Positions 9,036 through 37,342 of a stretch of DNA of 39,355 bases are shown here, in pieces. The first letter of the stretch is position 1. Every line of letters begins with the position of its first letter. The stretch spans positions 1 through 39,355 of IMG/VR virus record IMGVR_UViG_3300034119_000890; one strand, given 5' to 3'. Source of the DNA: a virus. The position numbers were made by a program, and so were the translations under genes. The notes under the pieces are model-generated. The model did no database searches, was not told where the DNA came from, and saw nothing but the letters and a program-made list of their open reading frames with translations.

Positions 9036-10115
9036 ATGATTAATGATCAAAATTTAATATTTGAAGAATACATAAAATCAATTGCATGTATTTCAGAGGC
9101 TAAATATCATGCAGGTCTTCATGGTTTAAAGCAACTTGCAGGGGCACACAAAAAAGGTTATATTATGGGGCATCCAGAAGAATTAATGGGTAGACAAGGT
9201 AAGTTTGAAGATAGGTTACAAAAAAGTATTGATAATAATGAAATTGTTGATTTAATAGAATTATTAACTCAAGAATACACTAACGACGAAGGAAAGACAT
9301 TTCCCCCATTTTACGAAGATCCTGACGATGCAAAATATGCTATATTAACACTTACAGGAGCAAACTTTAGACAAAGAACAAACTTCAACCCCTTTCCAGA
9401 TGTAGAAGAAATCGGAGCATTTAGAATACCTTATTTTAGAATTCCAGATTTAATATTAAATGTAGAATCTAGATTAAAAGATGCCACAGAAGGTGATCAA
9501 GAAATATTAAATGCTTTAGATAAAGTTCTTAAAAAAACTTATAAAGAATATCAAATCAGTAAAGGACAAACTCCAGAAGATGTCACAGAATTAAGTACAG
9601 TACGCTCGTTTAGACCTCTAGAAATCGAAAGAACCGATAAATTTGGAAATAAATATAAAACAATAACCACATCAAAGTATGGTGGTAAGGAGCGTGGGGG
9701 GCAAGCAGAAAGATTTATTAGAGCTACAACCAAAGATGAATATGAAAGATTAAAACATCTAGAAGATCAAGGATTCACTGTTGTGTTTGATCCATCACAA
9801 GATCCAGAAACACTTGGACAAAAAACACCTCATATGAATCCATCTAGAGAATTACCACCATCTATAGATTTTAGAAAACATAGAACAGAAGAACCAGAAA
9901 AGAAAAAAGAAACTAAACCAAAATCTAAACCTAAAGCAACATCTAAACCCAAACAAAAAAAACCTGAACCTAAAAAACCTGAAACTAAAAAACCTGAAAC
10001 TAAAAAACCTGAACCTAAATCTAAATCAAAAAAAGAAACAAAACCTGAACCTAAATCTAAAGCTAAAAAACAAAGAGTAGAAGAATCTTATTTTTTTAAA
10101 ATTATTCCGTTTTAA
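9036..10115 (+). CDS. Candidate packaged head protein with Lys/Pro-rich tail
   Basis: 359 aa, no family recognised. The N-terminus (LIFEEYIKSIACISE|AKYHAG) resembles a T4 capsid-targeting leader with an I-S-E|A cleavage site at residue 21. A globular region of about 30-285 follows, with PFYEDPDDAKYAI and a duplicated FRIPYFRIPDL. The tail (about 285-350) is almost only Lys, Pro, Glu, Thr and Ser and includes four KPE(P/T)K repeats; such a basic tail could bind packaged DNA. It lies on the opposite strand inside the structural block, between gp21 and gp4, and overlaps the end of the convergent gp4 gene by 14 bases. Virion location is inferred from leader, promoter class and position. Confidence 0.7.
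   Translation: MINDQNLIFEEYIKSIACISEAKYHAGLHGLKQLAGAHKKGYIMGHPEELMGRQGKFEDRLQKSIDNNEIVDLIELLTQEYTNDEGKTFPPFYEDPDDAKYAILTLTGANFRQRTNFNPFPDVEEIGAFRIPYFRIPDLILNVESRLKDATEGDQEILNALDKVLKKTYKEYQISKGQTPEDVTELSTVRSFRPLEIERTDKFGNKYKTITTSKYGGKERGGQAERFIRATTKDEYERLKHLEDQGFTVVFDPSQDPETLGQKTPHMNPSRELPPSIDFRKHRTEEPEKKKETKPKSKPKATSKPKQKKPEPKKPETKKPETKKPEPKSKSKKETKPEPKSKAKKQRVEESYFFKIIPF
9960..10019 (+). repeat. Four 15-bp tandem repeats coding KPE(P/T)K
   Basis: Units start at 9960, 9975, 9990 and 10005; each reads AAACCTGAA(C/A)CTAAA. They are in frame, giving residues 309-328 of the Lys/Pro-rich protein, and flanking sequence contains degenerate copies. Copy number is likely to vary between relatives. 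Confidence 0.9.
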
Positions 10116-10563
10116 ATAAATTCTTTTCTGTTAATAATAAAAATTCAGCATTACGGGAAGCGGCAAATTTTTTTGCAGCTTCCCATTTTGCTTTATTAAC
10201 AGCCCATTGAGTAACTTCATATTGAATAGTCGCTTTCTTTTTTCTATTGGAAATTTTTGGTGGTTGTGTTTGTGAAAACGGTTTTATCTCTATAAGATAT
10301 TTTTTAATCTGTTCACCTTCTTTAATTACAACATAGTTATCAACATAATATCTATGCATCCTTTCATCTATAGGACTTTTATATGGTATAACAATATTTT
10401 CACTACCCCATTCTAATACATTAGGATTTTGATCAGCCCAAAGAAAAAACTTTCTTTCATATGAAGAACGAAAAATTGCAACTTTACCTATAAATTTTTG
10501 TGGATTTTTAGGTCTAAATATACCTTGTATAAATCTTGGATCTTTTTTGAAAAGAGGTGGCAT
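10102..10563 (-). CDS. 4: Head completion protein gp4 (TnsA/PD-(D/E)XK-like)
   Basis: 153 aa; T4 gp4 (also called gp50) is about 150 aa. The family pattern is clear: NPQKFIGK, then YRSS-like SSYERKFFLWADQNPNVLEW, NIVIPYKSPIDERMHRYYVD and a core ending YLIEIKP, the E-x-K of the nuclease-type fold. It joins the head after packaging and is needed before tail attachment. It directly follows the ADP-ribosyltransferase-like gene. Its last bases overlap the convergent Lys/Pro-rich gene. Confidence 0.88.
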   Translation of the reverse strand: MPPLFKKDPRFIQGIFRPKNPQKFIGKVAIFRSSYERKFFLWADQNPNVLEWGSENIVIPYKSPIDERMHRYYVDNYVVIKEGEQIKKYLIEIKPFSQTQPPKISNRKKKATIQYEVTQWAVNKAKWEAAKKFAASRNAEFLLLTEKNLFKTE

Positions 10564-10567
10564 TAAA

Positions 10568-10575
10568 ATATTTAA
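10568..10575 (-). promoter_or_regulatory. Late-promoter-like box before gp4
   Basis: TTAAATAT on the minus strand, 4 nt before the ATG at 10563. It overlaps the TAA stop codon of the upstream ADP-ribosyltransferase-like gene. Confidence 0.4.
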
Positions 10576-11162
10576 CTTGGATCATATCCCCATTCAAATA
10601 TCGAATTACCGTCTGTATATAAATGTTTGACTAAAACTGTTTTTGTTAAAATCTTCCCCTTTCCACCTAAAGCAGAATTTTTATGTTCTATAGCATAATT
10701 ACGATCTATAGTAACCCAATCATTTGGATTGATAGTTATTTTTGTTTCTGGTTTATCTAAATCTGGAGATCTCTGTAAAGATTCTATTTTATCAACTAAA
10801 TCACTAAAATATGTTTTTTTATCATATCCATATGGAACTCTACCTCTTCTTAAAAACTTAGATTTTTTTTGGTTCAATTCATTTATCTGATCTCTAATAC
10901 TAAGTATCTTTGGTACTGCTCTATATATTTTTATTTTTGCATTAGGTTTATTATAAAAATTTCGTATAATATTTACAGCAGTTTTATCACGATAGTCTGC
11001 ATAATGAGCATAATATCTGGCAACAGTATCTGAAGGCAAAGAATAAAAATCTTTTCCATATACATCAATTACATTCCATAATGGTGTATCGTTTTTATTT
11101 GGTGCTGTATGAGATCCTCTATAATCTTCGGATTCTAAGAAATATTGTTTAAAACTTTTCAT
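10572..11162 (-). CDS. Putative ADP-ribosyltransferase with capsid-targeting leader
   Basis: 196 aa. The N-terminus MKSFKQYFLE|SED matches the T4 internal-protein leader MKTYQEFIAE|A in length and pattern, with the Glu at position 10. The rest resembles phage ADP-ribosyltransferase-fold proteins: IKIYRAVP with the NAD-binding Arg81, then ITINPNDWVTIDRNYAIEH (143-160) and a C-terminal NSIFEWGYDP with the candidate catalytic Glu190. T4 packages the unrelated-looking ADP-ribosyltransferase Alt, which modifies host RNA polymerase on injection. By analogy this could be an injected host-takeover enzyme, but the target is unknown. It sits between a spanin gene and gp4, after a 1 nt gap. Confidence 0.7.
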   Translation of the reverse strand: MKSFKQYFLESEDYRGSHTAPNKNDTPLWNVIDVYGKDFYSLPSDTVARYYAHYADYRDKTAVNIIRNFYNKPNAKIKIYRAVPKILSIRDQINELNQKKSKFLRRGRVPYGYDKKTYFSDLVDKIESLQRSPDLDKPETKITINPNDWVTIDRNYAIEHKNSALGGKGKILTKTVLVKHLYTDGNSIFEWGYDPS

Positions 11163-11163
11163 A

Positions 11164-11703
11164 TTATTCTTTTTTAGGAATTACTTTTATTAAATTATTA
11201 AAAAATCCAGAAGGAACAAAATAAATTATTAATGATATTATCCCTATTATAATTATACAAATTGTATAAAATTTTTTATCACGTTTACTCTGATCTTTTT
11301 CTAAAGCTTCTAATTTAATATTAGAGGCTACTAATTCTGCTACAATATTATCATCTTTTTGTTTTAATTCATTTATATCTTCTTTACGTTTATCATCTTC
11401 TTTTAATATATCATCAACAAAATCATCTAACTCTTTTCCATCTAAATTTTTTATATCTTTACCATCATTATCATTTGTATCTAATAAATCTTTTATAGCT
11501 TCTAATAAAGTTCCAATTTGTTTAGTATTAGCAGATCCAGATGAAATTATATGAGAAGTTTTAACTACTAACAATTTAACATCTTTAATAGTTTCATTTT
11601 GTTTTTTTCTGATTTCACGTTGATATGTTGTATGTGTTTCTATTGGTGTACGACAACTTATTATTGAAATAAAAATTAAAAAATATATAAAGTATTTTTT
11701 CAT
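11164..11703 (-). CDS. Putative unimolecular spanin (u-spanin)
   Basis: 179 aa with the layout of T1 gp11-type u-spanins, which fuse inner and outer membranes at the last step of lysis. There is a lipoprotein signal with lipobox IISC (Cys17), a periplasmic stretch of about 18-143 that is charged and coiled-coil-like, a C-terminal membrane helix at about 146-163 (FYTICIIIIGIISLIIYFV) and a short basic cytoplasmic tail ending IPKKE. T1 gp11 is shorter (about 131 aa). A lipoprotein-anchored spanin implies a Gram-negative host. No holin or endolysin is visible in the window, so lysis genes are scattered. An exact TATAAATA box is 2-3 nt before the ATG. Confidence 0.75.
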   Translation of the reverse strand: MKKYFIYFLIFISIISCRTPIETHTTYQREIRKKQNETIKDVKLLVVKTSHIISSGSANTKQIGTLLEAIKDLLDTNDNDGKDIKNLDGKELDDFVDDILKEDDKRKEDINELKQKDDNIVAELVASNIKLEALEKDQSKRDKKFYTICIIIIGIISLIIYFVPSGFFNNLIKVIPKKE

Positions 11704-18419: not shown

Positions 18420-18427
18420 TTATTTAT
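18420..18427 (-). promoter_or_regulatory. Late-promoter-like box before the GTG-start gene
   Basis: ATAAATAA on the minus strand, 4 nt before the GTG at 18415. It overlaps the stop codon of the GroES-like gene and decides the start. Confidence 0.5.
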
Positions 18428-18837
18428 TCTTTTTTACTAGCAATACCAAACATTCTTTGTTCGTTTAAAAACATACCATTTTTAATGGTACCATATCCTT
18501 CAATTTCCATGTTAGAAACTGTAACACCTTTATCATTTGGAAAAATTACGATATCATCCTTTTTACAATAAGCTACATTAGGACCAGTCAAAACAACTTT
18601 AGCTTTTCTCCATGCTTTTGTATTCGCATTTGTAGGTACAAATATACCATTTCGCATAATAGCTGCACCTTGAGAATCTGCAACCTCATCAACAAATTCT
18701 ACCAACACAATATCATCAAATACAAATGATAATTTATAATCATCTAATCCAAAAAATCCTTCGCTATTTGCATCCAAGTCAATCATACCTTTTTTATGCT
18801 TGACGTTGTCCATGTGTGAGGGTAATTCAATTGCCAT
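18424..18837 (-). CDS. GroES/gp31-like co-chaperonin
   Basis: 137 aa. The GroES pattern is visible from about residue 35: DDIVLVEF, a mobile-loop region (DEVADSQGAAIMRNGIFVP), then KAKVVLTGPNVAYCKKDDIVIFPNDKG and an end of short strands. T4 gp31 replaces GroES so that host GroEL can fold the large capsid protein gp23; the same job is likely here. The frame is open to a TTG at 18870, overlapping the upstream methyltransferase stop, but ATG 18837 (MAIELPSH) gives the natural start. The protein has an extra N-terminal arm of about 30 residues compared with GroES. Confidence 0.8.
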   Translation of the reverse strand: MAIELPSHMDNVKHKKGMIDLDANSEGFFGLDDYKLSFVFDDIVLVEFVDEVADSQGAAIMRNGIFVPTNANTKAWRKAKVVLTGPNVAYCKKDDIVIFPNDKGVTVSNMEIEGYGTIKNGMFLNEQRMFGIASKKE

Positions 18838-18866
18838 ACTATTAATTAATTTAAATTGTAAAAAAA

Positions 18867-19499
18867 TCAATCTTTCTTTTTTAAGATAGATGTAATACTT
18901 TCTCGATTATTAGTATAATACAATTCTGTATATTCTATTCTATCATAGATAATTTTTAAGTAATCTTCATTAACATGAAAATTATCAAAACTTTCTACTT
19001 TATTAGAAAAATTAGAAATCAATTCTAATGTAGTTTTTTTAGATAAATCATTGTTATAAAAATGATGATATCCTAAACTTGTGTGCAAATCTTCTAAAAT
19101 ATAGAAACCACCTTTTTTTAATCTATGTAACATAGATACTAAAGATAATTGTTGTTGATACATAGAATGACCACCATCATCAATAATAATATCAAATTTA
19201 ACAGATGGAAATATATTATTCATAGTATTAACATCTGTTTGATCTGCTTGTTCAATAAATATTCTATCTTCTTCTAAATGTTTTAAATTTGTAATATCTA
19301 CACCGTATATTTCAGAATTTAAAAAATAATCTTTCCACATTTTTAAAGATTCTCCTTTCCAAATTCCTATCTCCAATATTTTTAGATTATTATTTCTTAT
19401 GGAAGAAAATTTATTATCATAAAATTCAGTAAATTTGTGGTCTTTTGCTTTATCAGTATTATAAAGAATTCCAATTTCTGTTAAAGATTTTTGTTCCAT
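18867..19499 (-). CDS. SAM-dependent methyltransferase (class I)
   Basis: 210 aa, Rossmann-type. Motif I is LEIGIWKGESLKMW (about 41-54), the acidic end of strand 2 is YGVDITN, and the motif IV region is FDIIIDDGGHS followed by GGFYILEDLHTS. This arrangement, with the D-D-G-x-H and E-D-x-H residues, is typical of CmcI-like methyltransferases that modify sugars or natural products. Its place just upstream of gp62 and the sugar cassette suggests a glycan O-methyltransferase. A TTAAATAA box lies 5 nt before the ATG. The substrate is not known. Confidence 0.8.
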   Translation of the reverse strand: MEQKSLTEIGILYNTDKAKDHKFTEFYDNKFSSIRNNNLKILEIGIWKGESLKMWKDYFLNSEIYGVDITNLKHLEEDRIFIEQADQTDVNTMNNIFPSVKFDIIIDDGGHSMYQQQLSLVSMLHRLKKGGFYILEDLHTSLGYHHFYNNDLSKKTTLELISNFSNKVESFDNFHVNEDYLKIIYDRIEYTELYYTNNRESITSILKKKD

Positions 19500-19504
19500 T
19501 TGGT

Positions 19505-19512
19505 TTATTTAA
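19505..19512 (-). promoter_or_regulatory. Late-promoter-like box before the methyltransferase
   Basis: TTAAATAA on the minus strand, 5 nt before the ATG at 19499, in the 17 nt gap after the gp62-like gene. Confidence 0.45.
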
Positions 19513-19516
19513 TTTT

Positions 19517-19882
19517 TTATTTTAAAAATTCAATTAATTGTTTTATTTCTCTTTGTGACAACTCCATGCAATCAGCTAATTGCTTTGTTTCTACGTCCTC
19601 TTCTTTTTTATCATTTTTTTGTTTTTTAATATATTCTATTTTACGTTTTTTTGATTTAGGAAACATATTAAAACAAAAATCATATTGATCTTGTTTTAAT
19701 GATAAAACTTCTTTGAATTGATTTGACGTTTGATTAATAATCTGAGCAAGGTCGGGAGAATACATGCTACACCAACGATTAAGCATATACAAATTGAATT
19801 GAGTTTCCCTTTCATTGATTTTATTTAGCTTTTTTTTATTAAACAAAACAGAATCTATATAATTAAAAATAGTTTCTTCCAT
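19517..19882 (-). CDS. 62: Probable clamp-loader small subunit gp62
   Basis: 121 aa. The order of short motifs follows gp62 of T4-like phages, particularly the shorter cyanophage forms: a FNLYMLNRWCSMYSPDL helix, MN-like QTSNQF, QYDFCFNMFPKSKKR and a C-terminal helix LSQREIKQLIEFL. With gp44 it loads the gp45 sliding clamp. T4 gp62 is 187 aa. No gp44 or gp45 gene is in the window. It begins 1 nt after the fucose synthase stop codon, an odd place for a replication gene. Assignment is from pattern and could be wrong. Confidence 0.55.
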   Translation of the reverse strand: MEETIFNYIDSVLFNKKKLNKINERETQFNLYMLNRWCSMYSPDLAQIINQTSNQFKEVLSLKQDQYDFCFNMFPKSKKRKIEYIKKQKNDKKEEDVETKQLADCMELSQREIKQLIEFLK

Positions 19883-19883
19883 G

Positions 19884-20792
19884 TTAAAAGTTTTTCAAAA
19901 AATCATCATAAGATATTTTCAGTCCAATGTCAAATGGTGTTTCCTCAAAATCTATTATACTTCTCAATAAATCGTTATTTAATTTTTTTCTAGGAGTTCC
20001 ATCCAATTTAGGGTCACCAGTTTTTATTATTCCTTTATAACCAACTGTTTCAGCTACTTTTTTAGCTAAATCTAAAATAGTAAATTCGTAATTAGAACCA
20101 GCATTAACCCAATCTGGAGGATTTTCTATTTCTAATAATTGTAAACAAATTTTAGCTAAATCATCGACATACAGGAATTCTCTTTTCGGTAAACCACTTC
20201 CCCATATTTCAACTTCATTTACATTATTAATTTTTGCTGTATGAAATTTATGAAACATCCCTGGTATAACATGAGAATTTTCTGGATGATAATTATCATT
20301 TAATCCATACAAATTAGTTGGCATTATAGAATGATAGATCACACCATATTGTTTTCTATAATATTGACACATTTTTAATCCTGTAATTTTAGAAATTGCG
20401 TAACCTTCATTGGTTGGTTCTAATTCCGATTGTAATAAATATTCTTCTTTAATTGGTTGTGGAGCAAATTTTGGATATATACAGGAACTTCCCAAAAATA
20501 ATAATCTCTTAACACCATGTTTATATGAACTGTTTATTAAATTAGAAGATATCATCAAATTATCATACAAAAAATCAGCAGGATAAGTTTTATTATATAA
20601 AATACCTCCAACTTTAGCAGCAGAAATAATTACAATATCAGGTTTATTAATTGATATAAACTTATCAACATCATGCTGATTCCTTAAATCAAATAATCTA
20701 TCATCTGTAATTAAGTTATAATTATTAGCAAATCTACAAATAGCAGATCCAACCATACCTTTATTTCCAGCTACAAATAATTTCTTTTTCAT
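19884..20792 (-). CDS. fcl: GDP-L-fucose synthase family epimerase/reductase (Fcl or ColC)
   Basis: 302 aa, extended short-chain dehydrogenase. N-terminal NAD(P) motif GNKGMVG (about 9-15), catalytic SSCIYP with the family Ser/Cys, YAISK (Y-x3-K) and the GDP-fucose synthase segment FLYVDDLA near the C-terminal half. Fcl converts GDP-4-keto-6-deoxymannose to GDP-L-fucose by 3,5-epimerisation and 4-reduction. The close relative ColC makes GDP-L-colitose from the 3-deoxy intermediate. The ColD-like gene two places upstream means either product is possible, and the sequence does not settle it. It follows gmd after 4 nt. Confidence 0.88.
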   Translation of the reverse strand: MKKKLFVAGNKGMVGSAICRFANNYNLITDDRLFDLRNQHDVDKFISINKPDIVIISAAKVGGILYNKTYPADFLYDNLMISSNLINSSYKHGVKRLLFLGSSCIYPKFAPQPIKEEYLLQSELEPTNEGYAISKITGLKMCQYYRKQYGVIYHSIMPTNLYGLNDNYHPENSHVIPGMFHKFHTAKINNVNEVEIWGSGLPKREFLYVDDLAKICLQLLEIENPPDWVNAGSNYEFTILDLAKKVAETVGYKGIIKTGDPKLDGTPRKKLNNDLLRSIIDFEETPFDIGLKISYDDFLKNF

Positions 20793-20796
20793 AACT

Positions 20797-23000: not shown

Positions 23001-23020
23001 TTTAAGTTTTTGTTTTTTAT

Positions 23021-25158: not shown

Positions 25159-25163
25159 GCAGC

Positions 25164-25171: not shown

Positions 25172-25213
25172 TGAAATTTTAGAAACTATCAAGATTCTTA
25201 ATATTAAGAATTT

Positions 25214-25930: not shown

Positions 25931-25933
25931 AAT

Positions 25934-26716
25934 TTATATAATATTCCAATTAGAACAATAAAGATCTTTAGTGTTATTATTTGATAATCCAAAACCAAAC
26001 CATAATTTAGGTGCTATAACTTTTTTATTTATATTTTTATTTAAGTAACTTCCCCACCAAGAGAAAGAAGAATTAGCTATAATATTATTTTTACACATAG
26101 ACATCAAATATAAATCTTCATAATCTTTATTGTTTTCTATAAAAAATTTATTTTTTAAAAATTGAAATTCGTATTTACACCATTCCATATCATCAGAAAA
26201 TATTAAAAATGTAGTATCTTTATCAAAAAAACTTATAGCTTTCTTATAGTATTCTATAGATTGGACGGGATGAAAATGTTGTAAATTTAAATAGTTACCC
26301 CTCCTAACATGTATAGAACAAGTATTTTCTGTTAAAATATTTTTATATTTATTTTTTAAATATTGTTTTGTGTTATTATCTATCTCAAACAATTTATGGA
26401 TTTGTTCAATATGATTTATGAAATATTTTTCACTTTGAAAATATCCATCTAAAGTTAAACTATGTTCCACAGTAGGAATTTCTTTATGATGAAAAAACGG
26501 TTCTTCATACATAGGAAAACTTATATCATTATTAATGAATTTAACATTTCTTAAAATATTATTATAATATGTAGATACATCAGAATGAATTCTATGTACT
26601 GTTTGTATAAAGCAAATAAATTCCTTATTATCTCTCCAAGCCACAGATTGTCCTGCTGCTACTTGAAATAAAAAATTTCCTAGACCACCTTTTAAAATAG
26701 AAGAAATAAACATCAT
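25934..26716 (-). CDS. Alpha-1,2-fucosyltransferase family protein (GT11)
   Basis: 260 aa. All three GT11 motifs are clear: GGLGNFLFQVA (about 10-20), HVRRGNYLNL (GDP-fucose binding; usual form HxRRGDY) and NSSFSWWGSYLN near the C-terminus. These enzymes move L-fucose from GDP-fucose to a galactose in alpha-1,2 linkage. With gmd and fcl in the same cluster the donor would be made locally; GDP-colitose is also conceivable, because related enzymes accept it. Two adjacent Met codons at the start (MMFISS) make either usable. Confidence 0.9.
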   Translation of the reverse strand: MMFISSILKGGLGNFLFQVAAGQSVAWRDNKEFICFIQTVHRIHSDVSTYYNNILRNVKFINNDISFPMYEEPFFHHKEIPTVEHSLTLDGYFQSEKYFINHIEQIHKLFEIDNNTKQYLKNKYKNILTENTCSIHVRRGNYLNLQHFHPVQSIEYYKKAISFFDKDTTFLIFSDDMEWCKYEFQFLKNKFFIENNKDYEDLYLMSMCKNNIIANSSFSWWGSYLNKNINKKVIAPKLWFGFGLSNNNTKDLYCSNWNII

Positions 26717-27457
26717 TTAGTTATTATATACTATTTTTAGATTTTTATATTTTTCTGTTTCATTTAAATATATTTTTTCTACTAATTTTCCATAATTATA
26801 TAAACCTAAATTATTATGTGTATCATCAGTATTATTATCAATATCACCATCTAACGGAGCATTAGAATACCGATTTACTCTCCAAGACATTCCCTCATAA
26901 TGTTTGTAATAATTTCCTTCACCATTGAAATTACCAATTTTCAATTTATTATTTCTAATATCTTCAAAAAATGACGAACCAACATCATATCTAATAACAT
27001 CTCTAGATTTCATTCGAATTTCATCGTAGAATTTAATATTATTTTCTTTAATTTTTTTAACATTAATAAAACAATGCCAAGGATTAACACGCTTATGCAA
27101 TCGTTTCCCCCCTCTATCCCCAACAATTTCACCCATCAAAGTCAAATCCAGATCAATAAATTGTTTGAATATATCACTACAATCTTTCAAAAAGATAACA
27201 TCAGTATCTACCAATAAAGCATAATCTGTAGTAATTTTCTCTAAAAGAATATCAACACTTGGACCATGTAAACCCTTTTCATTTCTAAAATAAGGTATAT
27301 TACTCTGTTTAAGTAATTTTTCCGTATTGTTATCCGTAGAGTTTTCAGAAATTAAAATTTTACATTCTTTATACAAATTAGTAAAACTTTTCAACATATT
27401 TTCTGTAACATTTGGTGTGTTATAAGAAGCTGATATTAATGTTAAATTTTTATTCAT
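26717..27457 (-). CDS. Family 2-like glycosyltransferase
   Basis: 246 aa, GT-A fold. N-terminal LTLISASYNTPNVTENMLKS with the nucleotide-binding strand, DYALLVDTDVIFLKD carrying the D-T-D metal motif (about 80), and a long tail including GNYYKHYEGMSWRVNR. It abuts the GT11 gene and overlaps the GT10-like gene upstream by 8 nt. No membrane segment, so it acts in the cytoplasm. Sugar specificity cannot be read. Confidence 0.7.
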   Translation of the reverse strand: MNKNLTLISASYNTPNVTENMLKSFTNLYKECKILISENSTDNNTEKLLKQSNIPYFRNEKGLHGPSVDILLEKITTDYALLVDTDVIFLKDCSDIFKQFIDLDLTLMGEIVGDRGGKRLHKRVNPWHCFINVKKIKENNIKFYDEIRMKSRDVIRYDVGSSFFEDIRNNKLKIGNFNGEGNYYKHYEGMSWRVNRYSNAPLDGDIDNNTDDTHNNLGLYNYGKLVEKIYLNETEKYKNLKIVYNN

Positions 27458-28283
27458 AAAGTAAAGTTCTATCGTTTTCGTATATATAATCTTCTGCTAA
27501 AAGATATTTTTTAGCTCTTTCGAAATTATCATATACATATTCTAAATTATTTTCATAATATTCTTTATTACAAAATTTTAATTTATTTTTCAAATCATTC
27601 AAATCATCAAATACAATCATACCTTTTAAATTAAAAAAATCTCCAATAGAAGGACATCCCCAATAAATTGGTATAGTTCCTGTTAAAAAACAATCTATCA
27701 ATTTTTCTGTAAAATAATAATCTACTTTACAATTTTCTATACAAAAAGTATATCTATAATCTTTTAAAGCTGTAATCTTTTTTTCTATCATGTTATATCC
27801 ATTACCATATAAATCTATTCTATCTGAACCAGCTCTAGCTATTTGATGTCTTAAATTATGTCCAGTTGTTTCGTTTTTACATGATGCTATCAAACTGAAA
27901 TCTTTATACTTATCATATACATTAAAATCATAATCATCAATCCAAGCCCCAGCATGAGGAGCAAATTTAAATTTATTATTAATAGATAATAATTCTTTGT
28001 TATGAGTGATAACGTGTTTAAAATTATCAAAATTATGTTTCATCCATTCATAATATTTCTTATTATATTCAGGAGATTCTAACAACCATCCTATATTATT
28101 TTTACTATTTTTTCTAGCCAAATTGAATGATGTATCTGTGTAAACTATTTTAATCTCATCATTTTCTGGTGGATTAAAATCCCATACCATATATTTAGAA
28201 TGTCTTACAATAGGAAGTGGATTAGATGTATATAATCCATGCCTGAAAATAGAATCATGAATATATATTTTATGTTTCTTCAT
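27450..28283 (-). CDS. GT10-like alpha-1,3/4-fucosyltransferase
   Basis: 277 aa. The C-terminal domain has the GT10 signature: YRYTFCIENCKVDYYFTEKL (about 180-200), then TGTIPIYWGCP. Ahead of it is FSLIASCKNETTGHNLRHQI and RIDLYGNG. GT10 enzymes use GDP-fucose, matching local Gmd and Fcl. It overlaps the next gene by 8 nt and the previous by 4 nt. Together with the GT11 gene this gives two independent fucose-type transferases in one cassette. Confidence 0.82.
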   Translation of the reverse strand: MKKHKIYIHDSIFRHGLYTSNPLPIVRHSKYMVWDFNPPENDEIKIVYTDTSFNLARKNSKNNIGWLLESPEYNKKYYEWMKHNFDNFKHVITHNKELLSINNKFKFAPHAGAWIDDYDFNVYDKYKDFSLIASCKNETTGHNLRHQIARAGSDRIDLYGNGYNMIEKKITALKDYRYTFCIENCKVDYYFTEKLIDCFLTGTIPIYWGCPSIGDFFNLKGMIVFDDLNDLKNKLKFCNKEYYENNLEYVYDNFERAKKYLLAEDYIYENDRTLLYE

Positions 28284-29029
28284 ACTTTATAATTCCAAGT
28301 TTTAACTTCCTCTAATAATTCCGATTTATTCATACTACGTATACGTGTAAGTTCTTGTAAGTTTATTTTATTATAAGGATTATAATCAAAAGAAGTTTCT
28401 TTTCTTTCGTGATTCAAATGAAATATTGGAGCATTCACTCTTCCTATTTTATATCCTAATTTTTTATATCTTTCATATATTTCATTATCTTCATACCCAA
28501 CTCCTAAAAATTTTTCATTGGCTCCACCACCTTGCCAAAATATATTTCTATTAAAGAAAACAGCACCTCCAACATTTTGAGTACTTAGTAATTTACAATT
28601 TTCTTTTAAAATATTATTTAAATTTTTATTATTATATATTTCATAATGATATTCTTTTGGTATATCATAAAAATATCCATTGTGTGGATAAACCACATCA
28701 AGTTGATTAGTTAATAATAAATCAACACATCTTTCTACTATTGTTTTATTTAAAATAATATCTGCATCATAATGCACAACTATATCTCTGTCAGAATTAC
28801 TAATTCCATAGTTTACTGATTTTTGTCTATTAAAAAAATTTTCAGTTTTTACAAAAACATGTTTAACATTTTTTATAGAATTACCGATTTTAGAATCTAT
28901 ATCAAATTCTGAAATTATTATTTCCGAATCTGGTAAATTATGCTGTAAGTTATCTACAGATATTTTTAAATTATTTAATCTATCCTGACTATCAATTTTT
29001 ACTCCTATTACAAACGATAAGTTTTTCAT
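28280..29029 (-). CDS. GT2/galactosyltransferase-like glycosyltransferase
   Basis: 249 aa. Metal-binding DADIILN (about 94-100) in an N-terminal GT-A domain, and a C-terminal half with NVGGAVFFNRNIFWQGGGAN followed by FLGVGYEDNEIYERYKKLGY. The latter is the acceptor-side pattern of GT7-C/galactosyltransferase domains (G-G-x-x-E/N-x-F-x-G-x-G-x-E-D-x-E). It overlaps both neighbours by 4 nt. Transfer of a hexose, probably galactose-like, is plausible. Confidence 0.75.
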   Translation of the reverse strand: MKNLSFVIGVKIDSQDRLNNLKISVDNLQHNLPDSEIIISEFDIDSKIGNSIKNVKHVFVKTENFFNRQKSVNYGISNSDRDIVVHYDADIILNKTIVERCVDLLLTNQLDVVYPHNGYFYDIPKEYHYEIYNNKNLNNILKENCKLLSTQNVGGAVFFNRNIFWQGGGANEKFLGVGYEDNEIYERYKKLGYKIGRVNAPIFHLNHERKETSFDYNPYNKINLQELTRIRSMNKSELLEEVKTWNYKV

Positions 29030-29823
29030 GATAATTTATTTTTATATATAAGTTTTAGATTATTTTTTGTTTCTTCCAAAGAAACTCTGGGAATTTCAAG
29101 TAAATGTAATTTATGTTTCTTCTTGAAATATTCATAAGATTTATTAACAATATTTCTATGATTTGGATTAGAAGAAATTGTACTAGAACTAATAGTCCAT
29201 GGAATATCTGATAGATACTTATTAGATTCATAAATATCAGCAAACCACCAAAAAGGTGGATGCATTCCTGCTTTAATAATATTATAAGTATGTTCTAGAT
29301 GTTCTGTAGCATTATAGAAATTTTCATCCATTAAACCTACTTTATTTAAACATTCTTTAGTATAAAAGGAAAAAGCTCCAACACAATGTAAATATAATTG
29401 TATTGAAGTGTTTTTATATTCAATATTTGATATTGGTTTTGGTGTTTCCGTATTAGGAAGTTTATTCATTAAACCATGCTGACTATAATTAAAATGATGT
29501 ATACCAGTTTCTTTATATGCATTTATATATCTATCAAATACTGATTTATCTTTTATAATTATATCATCTTCCATCAAAAAAATATAATCACAACCTTTAG
29601 ATATAAGATATTTAAAGGCATCGTTTTTAGATACACTTACCCCCTTATTGGTATCATGTTGAATTAATTCTACATTAATATCTAAATTATAAGGAGTACC
29701 ATCATTAACTACCACTATTTCATCTAGTGTTCCATCTCTAGGAATTGATTGAAAACATTTTTTAAAATAGTTTTCTCTATTATAAGTAACTAATCCTAAA
29801 CCGATTTTTGGTTTCATTAACAT
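29026..29823 (-). CDS. Family 2 glycosyltransferase
   Basis: 265 aa. GT2 pattern: GLGLVTYNRENYFKKCFQSI, DEIVVVNDGT, HDTNKGVSVSKNDAF, and YIFLMEDDIIIKD with E-D-D metal ligands (about 84-89). It is the first gene of the sugar cassette and overlaps the next by 4 nt. ATG 29823 or 29817 (MLMKPKIG) could start it. The 40 nt gap to the divergent fibre gene carries that gene's late promoters; no clear box is on this strand. Confidence 0.82.
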   Translation of the reverse strand: MLMKPKIGLGLVTYNRENYFKKCFQSIPRDGTLDEIVVVNDGTPYNLDINVELIQHDTNKGVSVSKNDAFKYLISKGCDYIFLMEDDIIIKDKSVFDRYINAYKETGIHHFNYSQHGLMNKLPNTETPKPISNIEYKNTSIQLYLHCVGAFSFYTKECLNKVGLMDENFYNATEHLEHTYNIIKAGMHPPFWWFADIYESNKYLSDIPWTISSSTISSNPNHRNIVNKSYEYFKKKHKLHLLEIPRVSLEETKNNLKLIYKNKLS

Positions 29824-32855: not shown

Positions 32856-33581
32856 TTATCTTAATACAGTTTCACGACTGAATATAAAAAACCAAATAAC
32901 TTTAAATGCTAATAAAGATTTATCTTCTGGAAAACTTAATTTTTTAAGAGAATTAAGAATAGAATCTTTTATTACTTTTACTATTTCTTTTTCGTCATAA
33001 TAACCATCTATTTTTTTCTGTTTTAGTATATTCTTTATTATATCTAACAAATCTGTATCTATATCAGAGGGAAAATTAATTGCAGTCATATCACTTTCAG
33101 CAAAAAGATTATATGCTTCGGTTTTTGCATTAGGTGTAATTCTATTCAAAGGTAATAAAATTTTATCCACATTCAAGTTTTTGCTTTTAACTTGATTTAA
33201 ATTAAATTTAAATTTACCTAAATTTGTTCCATTTTTTATAAAAGTAACTTTTCTCAAAAGATTGTTATCACCACTATTAATTTTTTTATTTATATATTCT
33301 TGTTCTACCAAAACATAGATTTTAGAATCTAAAGGTTTGTTGGTGTTTTTATCAACTACTTTATTTTTATATTTACTATTAAAATAATCGTATCTAACTT
33401 TGAAAAATTCTGCATAAGGATTATTTTCGGGTTTTGTAATAGTACCTAAAGGACTAGCTTTAACTACAGCTTTAACTGGTGCTGAAACCACATTAGCAAT
33501 AGCTTTACCAACAGTTGACATTATACCTTCATACAAAGGATATTTTTTTATATACAAATCATATAGATCTTCGAATTTCAT
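32856..33581 (-). CDS. Candidate packaged head protein (leader plus unknown domain)
   Basis: 241 aa, no known family. Residues 1-18 (MKFEDLYDLYIKKYPLYE|G) look like a capsid-targeting leader with a cleavage site L-Y-E18|G. Next is a short Ala/Val-rich amphipathic helix (ANVVSAPVKAVVKASPLG), then a mixed Lys/Asn-rich domain ending in a hydrophobic helix (AFKVIWFFIFSRETVLR). A small amphipathic helix just behind a processing site could interact with membrane or DNA after ejection; this is conjecture. It shares one base with the stop of the upstream gene. Confidence 0.6.
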   Translation of the reverse strand: MKFEDLYDLYIKKYPLYEGIMSTVGKAIANVVSAPVKAVVKASPLGTITKPENNPYAEFFKVRYDYFNSKYKNKVVDKNTNKPLDSKIYVLVEQEYINKKINSGDNNLLRKVTFIKNGTNLGKFKFNLNQVKSKNLNVDKILLPLNRITPNAKTEAYNLFAESDMTAINFPSDIDTDLLDIIKNILKQKKIDGYYDEKEIVKVIKDSILNSLKKLSFPEDKSLLAFKVIWFFIFSRETVLR

Positions 33582-34003
33582 TATAAATACTCCATTCTAT
33601 ATATTTCTAAAAGATCTTTTTCTGTACAACCATTATTCAATAAAAATGATTCCAATGTCTGAATATCTGGACTATTCATCACCATTTGAACTAATGGACT
33701 ATCAAATGCCATATCTTTATTTTCTTTCAAAAAAATTAAAATATTCATTTTTAATTTTTCCATCTTAGTTAAACCACTTTCTATATCTATCATCCCACAT
33801 GGTATATCAGCCATCACACCCCCTTCAAAATTTTCTATATACATTTTAGCGGTCACACCATCTTCAGACAGCACAAAACCTTCATAACCTTGAAATTTAG
33901 AAATTTCACCATTAGCACAATAAGCAGGATCAACTTTTAATCTTACTCTTCTTAAATTAGATGTTCGAAAAGTATTTTCTAAAAATCTTGAAAACTTTTT
34001 CAT
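33581..34003 (-). CDS. Small SH3/KOW-like protein with capsid-targeting leader
   Basis: 140 aa from ATG 34003 (MKKFSRFLE|N). The ATG at 34009 (MCM...) is inside the TTAAATAA box, so box spacing favours 34003. The leader has an F-L-E|N site at residue 9. Residues about 20-65 alternate as a small beta barrel (RVRLKVDPAYC, FQGYEGFVLS, AKMYIENFEG, GVMADIPCGMIDI) like KOW/SH3 domains, and the C-terminus is helical (KMNILIFLKENKDMAF). Function unknown. It lies in a run of leader-bearing genes. Confidence 0.6.
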   Translation of the reverse strand: MKKFSRFLENTFRTSNLRRVRLKVDPAYCANGEISKFQGYEGFVLSEDGVTAKMYIENFEGGVMADIPCGMIDIESGLTKMEKLKMNILIFLKENKDMAFDSPLVQMVMNSPDIQTLESFLLNNGCTEKDLLEIYRMEYL

Positions 34004-34008
34004 ACACA

Positions 34009-34016
34009 TTATTTAA
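34009..34016 (-). promoter_or_regulatory. Late-promoter-like box deciding the start at 34003
   Basis: TTAAATAA on the minus strand, 5 nt before ATG 34003. It overlaps both the alternative ATG at 34009 and the stop of the upstream retropepsin-like gene. Confidence 0.45.
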
Positions 34017-34411
34017 CATTGTATTAATGCTTTTAATGGTTCTAAAAACTTTAAACCTATTAATACTTTCTCATCATTCTCAGATCTATTACCTATAGAG
34101 AATTTTTGGTTTGTATATTTTTTATCTTTTAGAATAAAATCAAAATGAACTATAGGTCTAGATTCTTCTACACCAGCACCGACATTAATTTTAATAGTAT
34201 CAACTAATCTTTTTTGGATTCTTTTACCGTCTGATGTTGTAAAATGAACAATATCGTCTTCTATCTTTATATCATCACCATGAAGAACCCCATATGCATC
34301 ATTCCCACTATCTATTTTAGCAGAAAAATCACCAATACCAACTATAGAAATGGGCTCTTTAGGAGAAAAAGTTATTTTAGATTCGGAATAAAACTCCTTA
34401 AACGATTTCAT
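34013..34411 (-). CDS. Retropepsin-like (RimK-associated Zn_protease family) protein with capsid leader
   Basis: 132 aa. The leader MKSFKEFYSE|S matches the T4 internal-protein leader with Glu at position 10. The rest follows the PF05618-type family (retropepsin-like fold, named ATP-dependent zinc protease): FSAKIDSGNDAYGVLHGDDI with the candidate catalytic Asp34 in D-S-G, then ESRPIVHFDFILKDKKY, SIGNRSENDEKVLIGLKFL. Bacterial members have D-T-G and N-R-S-D...L-L-G-x-x-F-L. If packaged, it could act in the head or on host proteins after injection. Fold assignment is by motif order, and activity is untested. Confidence 0.65.
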   Translation of the reverse strand: MKSFKEFYSESKITFSPKEPISIVGIGDFSAKIDSGNDAYGVLHGDDIKIEDDIVHFTTSDGKRIQKRLVDTIKINVGAGVEESRPIVHFDFILKDKKYTNQKFSIGNRSENDEKVLIGLKFLEPLKALIQC

Positions 34412-34415
34412 TTAA

Positions 34416-34423
34416 TTATTTAT
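34416..34423 (-). promoter_or_regulatory. Late-promoter-like box before the retropepsin-like gene
   Basis: ATAAATAA on the minus strand, 4 nt before the ATG at 34411. It overlaps the stop codon of the upstream gene. Confidence 0.5.
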
Positions 34424-34836
34424 GGCATATTTGGTTTTGTTTTTAAACCACTACCTTGCCCAGCTTTAAATGCTGCACGAACCAACGGATTATTCAAGTT
34501 AGATTTTACTTTTTGTGCATTTGTTTGAGCTTCTTTTACTTTTTCATCAGCTTGTTTCTTAATTTCATCAGAAGTTTCATCATCTTCATCTTCTGCATCT
34601 TCATCAGTCTCAAAAGTTTCAAACAAATAATTTTGTAAAAAAGAATTTACTAAAGCATCATAAGAAGACTTAATAACTTCAGATTTCTTCTTTTTACGTC
34701 TTTTTTTACCACCACGCTTAAGACTATAAGCAATAGCAACAGCTTGTTTAGGTTCTTTACCAGCTTTAATTTCGGTTTTTACATTTTTTTGAAAACCTTT
34801 TTTAGTTTTAGCTTTAGCTCCTTTTAATAATGGCAT
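34420..34836 (-). CDS. Small basic protein, candidate internal DNA-binding head protein
   Basis: 138 aa. The first 50 residues are strongly basic (MPLLKGAKAKTKKGFQKN, KEPKQAVAIAYSLKRGGKKR). The K-Q-A-V-A-I-A-Y-S helix is a pattern common in small phage and bacterial histone-like proteins. A middle acidic run (TDEDAEDEDDETSDE, about 78-92) is followed by a Lys-rich helix and a Gly-rich end. There is no capsid leader, but the gene is flanked by two leader-bearing genes and shares their box. DNA condensation inside the head is plausible. Confidence 0.6.
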   Translation of the reverse strand: MPLLKGAKAKTKKGFQKNVKTEIKAGKEPKQAVAIAYSLKRGGKKRRKKKKSEVIKSSYDALVNSFLQNYLFETFETDEDAEDEDDETSDEIKKQADEKVKEAQTNAQKVKSNLNNPLVRAAFKAGQGSGLKTKPNMP

Positions 34837-34840: not shown

Positions 34841-34848
34841 TTATTTAT
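34841..34848 (-). promoter_or_regulatory. Late-promoter-like box before the basic protein
   Basis: ATAAATAA on the minus strand, 4 nt before the ATG at 34836; a second CTAAATAA lies just upstream at 34848-34855. Confidence 0.5.
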
Positions 34849-35228
34849 TATTTAGATGTCTGATCTTGTGGTATTGCATCAGGGAAATATTCATTTTTTA
34901 CATCTTCAATGTTTTGTAAAACTTTATCTGGACCTCCAACAGAAGCAGAACGTAAAGCATCAATAAATTTTATTTGTAATTGTTGGTCTTGAGTTTTTAA
35001 AATTTGTTCAAAAGTATCAACTAAATCTGTAACTATATCAGCTAAACCTTTTTGTTGTGCTTGAATATTACTACTAAGATCAGAATCATTCGGATCAGAA
35101 GCAGATGGTTTGTTTTGTAATTCACCTTTAGGAGGTTTAGGCCCAGGTGGATTGCCCACTTCATCCACTCCAGCAATATCAGCTTCTAATAAAACATAAG
35201 TTTTTTGTACCAATTTATCAAACTTCAT
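34848..35228 (-). CDS. Candidate packaged head protein, Pro/Gln-rich
   Basis: 126 aa. Leader MKFDKLVQKTYVLLE|ADIAG with L-L-E15|A, the best (L/I)-x-E|A match in the group. After it come a Pro/Gly/Lys-rich linker (GNPPGPKPPKGELQNKPS, about 25-42) and an acidic helical domain (IVTDLVDTFEQILKTQDQQL). No family recognised. The start is supported by an ATAAATAA box 4 nt upstream. Confidence 0.6.
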   Translation of the reverse strand: MKFDKLVQKTYVLLEADIAGVDEVGNPPGPKPPKGELQNKPSASDPNDSDLSSNIQAQQKGLADIVTDLVDTFEQILKTQDQQLQIKFIDALRSASVGGPDKVLQNIEDVKNEYFPDAIPQDQTSK

Positions 35229-35232
35229 ACGA

Positions 35233-35240
35233 TTATTTAT
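35233..35240 (-). promoter_or_regulatory. Late-promoter-like box before the Pro/Gln-rich gene
   Basis: ATAAATAA on the minus strand, 4 nt before the ATG at 35228. It overlaps the stop of the upstream 163-aa gene. Confidence 0.5.
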
Positions 35241-35805: not shown

Positions 35806-36234
35806 ATGGAATGGGAAAATATACCAGAGAAAATAGAAAATTATTTTGGATTTGTCTATCTTATAGAAAGGATAAATGCTGGAATAGGAGAAAAAAAATA
35901 TTATTGGGGTTGTAAACAATTTTTTAGTAAAATTTCTAAACCACCATTAAAAGGAAAAACAAGAAAAAGAAGAGTTGTTAAACAATCTGATTGGAAATCA
36001 TATTATGGTAGTAGCAAAGAATTGCTTTTTGATATAGAAAAATACGGAAAAGAATCATTTAAAAGGACTATTTTAAAATGTTGTACAAGTAAATGGCAAA
36101 TGAAATACGAAGAATTGAATTACCAAATACAAAATAATGTTCTTTTTAGAGATGATGTCTACAATGGCATAATTCATGTTAGATTGAATCGTGCTCCACA
36201 AAATTTGAAAGGTTTTTATCAAAACAATATTTAA
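35806..36234 (+). CDS. GIY-YIG family homing-endonuclease-like protein
   Basis: 142 aa. The two signature strands are GFVYLIE (15-21) and KYYWGCKQF (31-39), a G-F-V...Y-W-G variant of GIY...YIG. The segment SDWKSYYGSSKELLFDIEKYGKESFKRTIL (61-90, in parts) is the common continuation in phage GIY-YIG endonucleases. It is freestanding, without a recognised DNA-binding tail. It overlaps the convergent Vsr-like gene by 56 bases. Such genes spread by cutting cognate sites in relatives. Activity is uncertain because the signature Gly-Ile-Tyr is degenerate. Confidence 0.75.
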   Translation: MEWENIPEKIENYFGFVYLIERINAGIGEKKYYWGCKQFFSKISKPPLKGKTRKRRVVKQSDWKSYYGSSKELLFDIEKYGKESFKRTILKCCTSKWQMKYEELNYQIQNNVLFRDDVYNGIIHVRLNRAPQNLKGFYQNNI

Positions 36235-37060
36235 TTTCAGATAAATATTCCCTTTTTCTTGCAAGTTGATATATTTTATTTTTTATAAAATCTGTATAAC
36301 TATTATACTTATTAAGTACATAATTTATAAATTTCTCTTTATTCATATAAATATAATCTCTTTCTTTTATAGGATTTAATAAATATAATTTTTTATTTCT
36401 TAATAAAAATTGCCATATTTTATTATATTTTACTTTTATTTCCGAATATCTACAGCATTCATTTAAAATATAATCGATATCTTTTTGACTATAAGTCTCA
36501 TATAACAAATCTTTATCTTCTATTATTATAGCATCTATAGTTTTTTTAGTTATATTTAAATTAGTAAATTCGTTTATTTTTTTAATATATTTTTTAAATT
36601 GCTTTTTTATTTTTAGTATAGAATCATTTATACTTTTTAATTCATTTAAACTATTTTCTTTTATTAAAATAAATAAAATATTATTTTCTTCACATAATTT
36701 TCTTTTTGTTTTATCTTTTAAATTGCTATTTTTGTGCCAATAATAGCCATTATACTCTAATGCTATTTTATATTTTTCCGAAAAGACATCTAATTCCGTT
36801 TTATCTTTTAGGATTTTTCTTGTATTATATAAACATTTATCATTTAAAATTGTTTCTAATATTTTTTTACATATTAATTGTTGTATAGAACTTCGTCTTG
36901 TACCAAAAATATTTTTAAAATCACCTATTTCTGTTTTGTGTTTATAATAAAAATAATGAAATTTTTTATTTTTTTGTAAAAAATGTGATATTGATTTATA
37001 TTTATGTATGTTATTTTTAATATATTCTAATTTTTCTTTTTTATCATTTTTTAACACCAT
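36179..37060 (-). CDS. Vsr/EDxHD-type homing-endonuclease-like protein
   Basis: 293 aa, extremely Lys/Asn/Ile-rich. The central segment TELDVFSEKYKIALEYNGYY, then WHK (88-110), followed by KRKLCEENNILFILI, matches the catalytic core of Vsr-like and EDxHD (I-Bth0305I-type) homing endonucleases: E89-x-D91, E102 and H109. The N-terminus (about 1-60) and C-terminus (about 170-293) contain short repeated helical motifs that may bind DNA. The ATG is preceded at 4 nt by ATAAATAT. It lies head-to-head in sequence with GIY-YIG, overlapping its last 56 bases, and splits the packaged-protein gene run. Confidence 0.75.
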   Translation of the reverse strand: MVLKNDKKEKLEYIKNNIHKYKSISHFLQKNKKFHYFYYKHKTEIGDFKNIFGTRRSSIQQLICKKILETILNDKCLYNTRKILKDKTELDVFSEKYKIALEYNGYYWHKNSNLKDKTKRKLCEENNILFILIKENSLNELKSINDSILKIKKQFKKYIKKINEFTNLNITKKTIDAIIIEDKDLLYETYSQKDIDYILNECCRYSEIKVKYNKIWQFLLRNKKLYLLNPIKERDYIYMNKEKFINYVLNKYNSYTDFIKNKIYQLARKREYLSEIKYCFDKNLSNFVEHDSI

Positions 37061-37064
37061 AAAT

Positions 37065-37072
37065 ATATTTAT
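37065..37072 (-). promoter_or_regulatory. Late-promoter-like box before the Vsr-like gene
   Basis: ATAAATAT on the minus strand, 4 nt before the ATG at 37060, within a T-rich (plus-strand) 60 nt gap that holds no other feature. Confidence 0.35.
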
Positions 37073-37120
37073 TATAATGGTATTATTTTTTAAGATTTTT
37101 TAGATTTTAGATTTCTATCT

Positions 37121-37342
37121 TTATTTTTTATTTTTTCGAGATTTTTTAATTTTTAGATTTCTTTTTTGAATTTTTCCTAGTGGTTTGGCTAATATTGAAG
37201 ATCCTGTATTCCATGAATCTACATTACCGAAAGACCCCCCTGTAGCTCCAGCATCAACATTTCCATATTTAGTCATAATTCCAGAACCACCAATAGTCAT
37301 ATATTCCATTAAATATGTATATAATTCATCGAATTTACTCAT
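37121..37342 (-). CDS. Small candidate packaged head protein with basic tail
   Basis: 73 aa. Leader MSKFDELYTYLME|YMTIG with L-M-E13|Y, a Gly/Ser/Thr-rich middle (GNVDAGATGGSFGNVDSWNT) and a strongly basic end (QKRNLKIKKSRKNKK). After cleavage about 60 residues would remain, like the small DNA-associated internal proteins of T4. No family recognised. The start has a TTAAATAA box 4 nt upstream and is divergent from uvsY. Confidence 0.6.
   Translation of the reverse strand: MSKFDELYTYLMEYMTIGGSGIMTKYGNVDAGATGGSFGNVDSWNTGSSILAKPLGKIQKRNLKIKKSRKNKK

What the first reader, a model, noticed from the sequence alone, without database searches (positions are those of the whole stretch)
9036..37342. 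A set of at least seven proteins with T4-like capsid-targeting leaders
T4 internal proteins begin with a leader like MKTYQEFIAE|A that targets them into the prohead and is cut by gp21 after Glu. Here similar starts occur at 9036 (I-S-E|A), 11162 (MKSFKQYFLE|S), 33581 (L-Y-E|G), 34003 (F-L-E|N), 34411 (MKSFKEFYSE|S), 35228 (L-L-E|A) and 37342 (L-M-E|Y). gp21 and its gp23 site (L-R-E|A) are present too. Domains behind the leaders differ: ADP-ribosyltransferase, retropepsin, SH3-like, basic tails. This looks like an injected effector set that is modular behind one leader.
Basis: partly seen in the sequence, partly recalled or inferred. Interest (0 to 1): 0.86.

Follow-up and report, generated by a model that had tools for sequence, protein, structure and literature searches.

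The report
Capsid-targeting leaders on late phage proteins
An uncultured T4-like phage puts the same kind of short, probably removable "pack me into the head" tag on six or seven unrelated proteins, among them a conserved retropepsin-like protease and a mimic of the coat protein's arm.

Summary
In detail: all seven starts exist at the given coordinates, with gp21 and a predicted gp23 cut. Comparison supports a T4-type capsid-targeting leader. The retropepsin-like protein (34013-34411) has the leader with Glu at the cut in 54 of 62 distinct homologues. Another leader type sits on a body about 80% identical. A Vibrio T4-like relative of 10572-11162 starts MKTYTEFLSE|, whereas a mycobacteriophage relative, in which no gp21 was found, starts where the cut is predicted. 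"Injected effector set" is only partly supported: retropepsin homologues occur in 11 of 11 related contigs searched (one without the catalytic motif), and in nearer relatives much of the set is one syntenic block, so a head-core or maturation role is as likely. 37121-37342 resembles the post-cleavage arm of relatives' gp23. The ADP-ribosyltransferase label found no support. Besides: TAAATA lies 5-7 nt before ATG in 26 of 68 late and 0 of 93 early genes of the clade and before 5 of the 7 leader genes, suggesting leaderless late mRNAs. The leader concept is known from T4 (PMC9026906).

The parts
34013..34411 (-). E: retropepsin-like (RimB/RloA family, PF05618) protein with leader MKSFKEFYSE|S; catalytic-type motif DSG at residues 34-36
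   Evidence: TAAATA box 34417-34422
33581..34003 (-). D: leader MKKFSRFLE|N on an acidic conserved protein of unknown fold; start at 34003 preferred over 34009
   Evidence: box 34010-34015
32856..33581 (-). C: leader MKFEDLYDLYIKKYPLYE|G on a basic protein; only 22-27% identical in L087/L088, L089 and L181 (90% in L086) while the leader pattern with E|G persists
   Evidence: no box
34848..35228 (-). H: leader MKFDKLVQKTYVLLE|A on an acidic protein
   Evidence: box 35234-35239
37121..37342 (-). K: leader MSKFDELYTYLME|Y, then a likeness of the gp23 arm that follows gp23's own cut site in relatives, then a basic tail
   Evidence: box 37348-37353
10572..11162 (-). B: leader MKSFKQYFLE|S on a phrog_2579 domain that elsewhere stands alone or lies in large phage proteins
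   Evidence: no box at 5-7 nt
9036..10115 (+). A: leader-like start MINDQNLIFEEYIKSIACISE|A, divergent middle, Lys/Pro-rich basic tail, conserved C-terminus ESY..F...IPF; weakest leader of the set
   Evidence: box 9023-9028
34420..34836 (-).
   Evidence: box 34842-34847
8295..8960 (-). gp21 prohead protease (S77)
   Evidence: PF03420 107.5 bits; phrog_207; box 8966-8971
5119..6738 (-). gp23 major capsid protein, predicted cut CLRE|AN
6801..7688 (-). gp22-like scaffold, possible N-terminal cut LLKE|A, present in many but not all relatives
   Evidence: name by position between gp21 and gp23 (inference)
7741..8277 (-). small head-core candidate between gp21 and gp22 (gp67/gp68 position)
   Evidence: position and relatives; identity is inference

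Best explanation
Most of the seven are late proteins that a T4-type capsid-targeting leader directs into the prohead core, where gp21 cuts after the conserved Glu and frees the mature protein inside the head. An aromatic residue at position 3-4 and a hydrophobic one three residues later would bind the core (in T4 residues 4 and 7 target; 8 and 10 are needed for cutting: PMC9026906). The set is mixed: a block (33581, 34013, 34848, 37121, with 32856 and 34420) that more likely serves head assembly, maturation or DNA arrangement, and accessory cargo (10572, perhaps 9036) that is the better candidate for injection. In the block, 34013 would be a second, aspartic, capsid-resident protease; 37121 would place a copy of the gp23 arm plus a basic tail inside the shell, tethering DNA or core to the lattice. 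Shown by sequence: leaders, their conservation and exchange, gp21, retropepsin family and predicted fold, gp23-arm likeness, late-type boxes. Inferred: targeting, cutting, packaging, every function.
For: Leader conservation: of 62 distinct retropepsin homologues (window included) 52 match F-x-x-hydrophobic followed by Glu, 2 more do so behind an N-terminal extension (seen by eye), 2 have Asp, 3 have the leader without an acid at the usual place, 3 have no recognisable leader (the 80 best of 258 loci, fetched by a body motif, not by the leader). Leader exchange: L089 body 97 of 122 identical, leader 3 of 9, of the 34848 type. Vibrio T4-like relatives of 10572 begin MKTYTEFLSE| and MYSFSEFINLAE|, Mycobacterium phage Stark begins MSDYRGTHTAP at the predicted mature end; S77 protease found in the Vibrio phages, not in Stark. 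AlphaFold models of 10572 and 34013 put residues 4-10 in a helix of low confidence. Late-type expression: TAAATA 5-7 nt before ATG in 32 of 65 leader genes against 327 of 1691 others, Fisher p 1.2e-7. Retropepsin: 16 of 16 relatives match PF05618 at E up to 0.01; Foldseek 2pma, 9g58, 9g59 at E 3e-8 to 4e-7; PDB profile match. gp23 arm: up to z 17.9 over shuffles.
Against: No proteomics. In the phage collection no leader-bearing retropepsin was found; two searches found only the RimK-fused copy in Pelagibacter phage Mosig. The window protein itself is under the Pfam cut-off (19.6 against 27 bits). Contig G009 keeps the leader but has lost the D[ST]G motif. Relatives of 33581 in G002 and L092 lack the Glu, that in G009 has Asp. 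The gp23-arm likeness is weak against the window's own gp23 (z 1.5) and weak in two of seven K proteins (L087, L094). B and C lack the late box. gp23 and gp4 starts in the 11 contigs lack it too (0 of 11, 0 of 9). Single-genome leader enrichment is modest.
Confidence: 0.8

Rival explanations
1. All are injected effectors, the leader being a general export tag, as in T4 Ip1-3 and Alt.
For: T4 Ip1-3 share only the leader and block type IV restriction enzymes (PMC12373910, passages); many phage ARTs and other NAD-system enzymes are thought to be head-packaged (PMC9503650, passages); the 10572 domain also occurs in large phage proteins.
Against: Retropepsin homologues in 11 of 11 contigs searched and a block that keeps its order in nearer relatives are unlike the variable IP genes; 37121 imitates the coat protein.
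Confidence: 0.3
2. All are prohead-core or scaffold pieces, none enters the cell.
For: Conserved block, late-type boxes, gp23-arm likeness; sub-threshold gp67 match of 34420.
Against: 10572 was found with this leader only in G014/L171 and L172 among IMG/VR contigs, behaves like an accessory module and has homologues in phages without a detected gp21.
Confidence: 0.3
3. The N-terminal likeness is a by-product of N-terminal amino-acid bias in AT-rich genomes, not a targeting signal.
For: Single-genome enrichment is modest and in three contigs not significant; 1 profile hit in Staphylococcus phage K.
Against: Ortholog conservation and exchange; 38 of 1705 without orthologues of the window families against 1 of 431 in non-T4 controls; internal Met windows score 9 or more in 0 to 1.2%.
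Confidence: 0.07

Closest known systems
T4 internal proteins IPI, IPII, IPIII and Alt with capsid targeting sequences (PMC9026906; PMC12373910)
   Same: Short N-terminal propeptide, aromatic or hydrophobic anchors, Glu at the cut, gp21 protease, unrelated bodies behind one leader; a T4-like Vibrio relative has MKTYTEFLSE.
   Different: Cargo families differ: retropepsin-like, gp23-arm likeness, phrog_2579 domain; in relatives also cytidylyltransferase-like, sub-threshold RNA-ligase-like and DUF6267 proteins; two leader lengths; much of the set keeps its order in nearer relatives.
RimB and RloA retropepsin-like proteases (PF05618; PMC11957791; PDB 9g58, 9g59, 2pma)
   Same: Predicted fold, D[ST]G motif, family profile.
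   Different: Capsid-type leader, often a late-type box, no RimK-type partner found in 11 contigs; in Mosig the domain is fused to RimK instead.
T4-type gp23 N-terminal arm
   Same: K proteins repeat the sequence just behind the gp23 cut of relatives.
   Different: Stand-alone, 58-83 residues in the eight listed, own leader, basic tail, no coat domain.
T4 late promoter TATAAATA, read by gp55 (recalled)
   Same: TAAATA core, late genes, gp55 homologues matched 9 times in the 11 contigs.
   Different: In T4 TATAAATA lies 13-52 nt before ATG where found within 80 nt; here TAAATA lies 5-7 nt before it.

Membership tests
T4 capsid-targeted (internal) proteins | N-terminal propeptide of about 10-19 residues with aromatic or hydrophobic anchors | tested here: met
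   six of seven window proteins by sequence, 33581 with 9 residues up to the Glu; 54 of 62 homologues of 34013 with Glu at the site; 9036 deviates (21 residues, core further in)
T4 capsid-targeted (internal) proteins | cognate gp21 (S77) protease in the genome | tested here: met
   window; 15 of the 17 IMG/VR contigs searched, not found in G007 and G012, which may be fragments
T4 capsid-targeted (internal) proteins | hydrophobic-x-Glu at the expected cut | tested here: met
   all seven window proteins if Tyr is allowed (34013 has Y-S-E); the actual cut is not testable here
T4 capsid-targeted (internal) proteins | present in the virion and cut after Glu | not testable with these tools
   needs proteomics
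T4 capsid-targeted (internal) proteins | injected into the host | not testable with these tools
   needs infection experiments
RimB/RloA retropepsins (PF05618) | retropepsin fold | tested here: met
   predicted model
RimB/RloA retropepsins (PF05618) | D[ST]G catalytic motif | tested here: met
   invariant D34 and G36 in the 16 sequences of A1, which left out G009, where it is lost
RimB/RloA retropepsins (PF05618) | score over Pfam's curated cut-off for the window protein | tested here: not met
   19.6 against 27 bits, though 16 of 16 relatives match at E up to 0.01, best 7.6e-11; hence called retropepsin-like with this family's predicted fold, not a certified Pfam member
RimB/RloA retropepsins (PF05618) | cuts polyglutamate (RimB) | not testable with these tools
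   no Glu run longer than 3 in the 23 window proteins listed
ADP-ribosyltransferases (for 10572-11162) | ART fold or family match | tested here: inconclusive
   no convincing Pfam match; best PDB row an ART toxin subunit at E 0.48, prob 0.13; mainly aligns residues 85-141
T4-type late promoters | TAAATA core in late, not early, genes | tested here: met
   late 26 of 68, early 0 of 93, uneven between late genes
T4-type late promoters | transcription start 6 nt behind the box | not testable with these tools
   needs 5'-end mapping; the T4 spacing is recalled

The most novel reading that the evidence does not exclude
A widespread uncultured T4-like clade loads its heads with a conserved second, retropepsin-like maturation protease and with a small mimic of the coat protein's arm, both by T4-type leaders, and makes these and other late proteins from late promoters placed so that the mRNA begins at the AUG (leaderless late transcription).
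Probability: 0.45. Interest if true: 0.82.

Novelty: new variant of a known kind. Interest (0 to 1): 0.68.

Why it matters
It extends capsid targeting from a few T4 proteins to a cargo system of a whole clade that can be read from sequence, and gives a leader profile for finding packaged proteins in uncultured phages. A head-resident aspartic protease would be a second maturation or delivery enzyme beside gp21. The gp23-arm likeness suggests a direct way to anchor core or DNA to the shell. The late-type box 5-7 nt before ATG makes leaderless late expression in a T4-like lineage directly testable.

Tried and rejected
Polyglutamate cleaning of the scaffold by the retropepsin: no RimK match in 11 contigs, no long Glu runs in the 23 listed window proteins; not claimed. 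ART for 10572: not supported (the VIA list did not show ARTs, which excludes nothing). TATAAATA in the window as such is not enriched (13 against 17.1 expected); only the fixed distance to ATG is. Counted without gene calls, TAAATA-N5-ATG also occurs 10 times each in T4 and Staphylococcus phage K (3 and 4 for the reversed box), but not at their called gene starts. Rhodothermus phage RM378, named as Far-T4 reference in PMC4360716, has 0. The clade was not assigned to Far-T4 by a tree; phoH is only a lead (PMC4360716, passages). Gene calls in scripts are simple longest-ORF calls; one window hit (26717-27394) is surely a false internal start. The leader exchange in L257 rests on a GTG start and is less sure than in L089/L246. 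Searched contigs: searches used 11 of the 17 IMG/VR contigs; G007, G010 and G014-G017 were left out, and G014, a 31.7-kb fragment, shows no retropepsin. Papers: PMC9026906, PMC12373910, PMC11957791, PMC9503650 and PMC4360716 seen as passages; all others only as search listings. Print: 0 papers held with 'aspartic protease', 'prohead' and 'bacteriophage' together; 'retropepsin' with phage, capsid, T4-like gave 716 papers with three terms, 10 listed, none of these with 'retropepsin'; 'leaderless' with 'T4-like' gave 5 and late promoter/leaderless/phage/TATAAATA 13 (10 listed), none about this by title or start of abstract; capsid-targeting searches gave mainly T4 and giant-phage papers (lists partly capped). 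No search was made for the gp23-arm likeness.
Full report
What the window is. The 39,355-base record is a fragment of an uncultured T4-like virus (calls it a virus record). It holds gp23, gp21, portal and PhoH, head-closure and neck-type genes, a gp22-like scaffold (by position) and a block of sugar-nucleotide and glycosyltransferase-type genes (four of them searched). Its gp23 is at best about 32% identical to isolates in the 25 rows listed, mostly cyanophages; close relatives are IMG/VR contigs.

Check of the observation. The seven starts are exactly as stated. 9036 is on +, the rest on -. The start of 33581-34009 is better put at 34003. A pattern taken from the T4 literature (residues 4 and 7 target, 8 and 10 are needed for cutting; PMC9026906, passages) hits 4 of 51 window genes, four of the seven, with 1.0 expected and 3 of 300 shuffles as good; it is not significant in G001, G008 and G009 taken singly. 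With a profile trained on the clade, leaders outside the training list are 48 of 1705 genes in 11 related contigs, 1 of 431 in two phages without a detected S77 protease (SPO1, Staphylococcus phage K), 18 of 1083 in T4, KVP40, Syn9 and S-PM2. Ten of the 48 are orthologues of window leader proteins or gp21; without them it is 38 of 1705 against 1 of 431, p 0.002. The profile finds T4 ipI but misses ipII and ipIII, so it is a clade tool.

Leader as a unit. The 34013 protein was traced by a body motif: 267 stretches matched, 258 encode a relative, the best 80 loci were kept. Among 62 distinct sequences 52 match the F-x-x-hydrophobic core followed by Glu (48 short, 4 long), 2 more do behind an N-terminal extension, 2 have Asp at the site, 3 the leader without an acid at the usual place, 3 no recognisable leader. 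In T4 Asp at position 10 stops cutting but not targeting (PMC9026906). In L089 and L246 the body is about 79% identical to the window's (97 and 96 of 122) but the leader is of the 34848 type (3 of 9 identical). The 10572 domain is the second case. Vibrio phages VH7D and 1.081.O, which have S77 proteases, begin MKTYTEFLSE|Y and MYSFSEFINLAE|S; Mycobacterium phage Stark, in which none was found, begins MSDYRGTHTAP, the predicted mature end of the window's protein (SEDYRGSHTAP). In the Manatee Spring phage, also without one, the domain is the C-terminal part of a longer protein. L173, from a 354-kb virus with an S77 protease, has a longer start ending in LTE before the same domain.

What stands behind the leaders. 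34013 is retropepsin-like: 16 of 16 relatives match PF05618 at E up to 0.01 (the window protein alone is below the cut-off), a profile finds PDB 9g58 and 2pma, the AlphaFold model (mean pLDDT 87.1) matches 2pma, 9g58 and 9g59 at E 3e-8 to 4e-7, and D34 and G36 are invariant in 16 sequences; G009, not among them, has lost the motif. One homologue is found in each of the 11 related contigs searched, of 17 at hand. RimB of this family removes glutamates from a ribosomal protein that RimK modifies (PMC11957791, passages); Pelagibacter phage Mosig fuses the two domains, but no RimK was found in the 11 contigs. 37121: behind its leader it resembles the stretch that follows gp23's own cut site and ends in a basic tail. 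Scores against the five gp23 arms tested exceed shuffles by z 4 to 18 for five of seven K proteins, except the window's K against its own gp23 (z 1.5); in most of these comparisons the match begins right behind the cut. Two K proteins (L087, L094) are weak (z up to 3.0). 10572 carries a phrog_2579 domain that also lies in large phage proteins; no ART evidence. 33581, 34848 and 32856 have no convincing family match. In relatives, leaders also stand before cytidylyltransferase-like, RNA-ligase-like (sub-threshold) and DUF6267 proteins, several of them near the retropepsin gene; of ten such proteins searched, four had no Pfam or PHROG match at E up to 0.01.

Late expression. TAAATA lies 5-7 nt before ATG in front of 33581 (start 34003), 34013, 34848, 37121 and 9036, not before 10572 and 32856. 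In the 11 contigs this holds for 26 of 68 homologues of T4 late genes, 0 of 93 of T4 early genes and 310 of 1544 others (Fisher p 6e-12 for late against early). By late gene it is uneven: gp21 8 of 10, portal 6 of 9, gp18 4 of 5, gp13 3 of 4, gp25 3 of 5, gp17 2 of 6; gp23 0 of 11, gp4 0 of 9, and 0 of 9 for gp5, gp6, gp15 and gp19 together. It is 0 of 1083 in four T4-like isolates and 1 of 431 in the two controls. A count without gene calls agrees: TAAATA-N5-ATG 72 in G002 against 10 for the reversed box and 4 for the reverse complement; G011 shows no excess (5 against 9); T4 and Staphylococcus phage K have 10 each against 3 and 4. Leader genes carry the box in 32 of 65 cases, other genes in 327 of 1691 (p 1.2e-7). 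Since T4's TATAAATA ends about 6 nt before the start of transcription (recalled), the mRNA would begin at or near the AUG. In T4 TATAAATA lies 13-52 nt before ATG. A role as a translation signal instead is not excluded, but the lack in early genes speaks against a general one.

Mechanism. The most likely course: late transcription makes the tagged proteins together with gp21 and the core proteins; the leader helix binds the core; gp21 cuts after Glu; mature proteins stay in the head, and some leave with the DNA. Steps after transcription are inferred. The block around 34013 looks more like head machinery than a set of effectors; 10572 is the best effector candidate.

Novelty. Leaders with unrelated cargo are known for T4 (PMC9026906; PMC12373910). 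In an open-licence library, with partly capped lists, I saw no paper on a capsid-targeted retropepsin or on late boxes placed at the start codon; the gp23-arm likeness was not searched for in print.

Noticed in passing
window, 20 of 51 genes; most of the 11 related contigs: TAAATA box 5-7 nt before ATG in late but not early genes, suggesting leaderless late mRNAs in this T4-like clade.
   Followed up: yes
35806-36234 (+) and 36179-37060 (-): A SegE-type GIY-YIG nuclease and a homing-endonuclease-like ORF sit inside the leader-protein block.
   Followed up: no
18424-29823: Block with nucleotide-sugar epimerases, an aminotransferase and glycosyltransferase-type genes (four searched; the rest read from sequence); only 2 of 15 genes have the late box.
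   Followed up: partly
L154:4002-5387: Pelagibacter phage Mosig fuses the same retropepsin domain to a RimK-type ATP-grasp domain.
   Followed up: partly
G009:C1:7824-8189: Retropepsin homologue that keeps the leader but has lost the D[ST]G motif.
   Followed up: partly
G002:150585-151142, G004:114013-114615, G005:49193-49798, G011:28115-28720: Another leader family (..KFIKLYE|..I.RY..GGFL..D), 185-201 residues, shared by four contigs; not seen among the window's ORFs.
   Followed up: no
11164-11703 (-): Small protein with a lipoprotein-like start (..SIISC), conserved in several relatives.
   Followed up: no
L173 (353,772-base contig): Very large virus with an S77 prohead protease and the phrog_2579 domain behind a longer start.
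   Followed up: partly
L282, L293: Retropepsin homologues with an inserted K/C-rich module (..GKLVNNCVK.. or similar) behind or in place of the leader.
   Followed up: no
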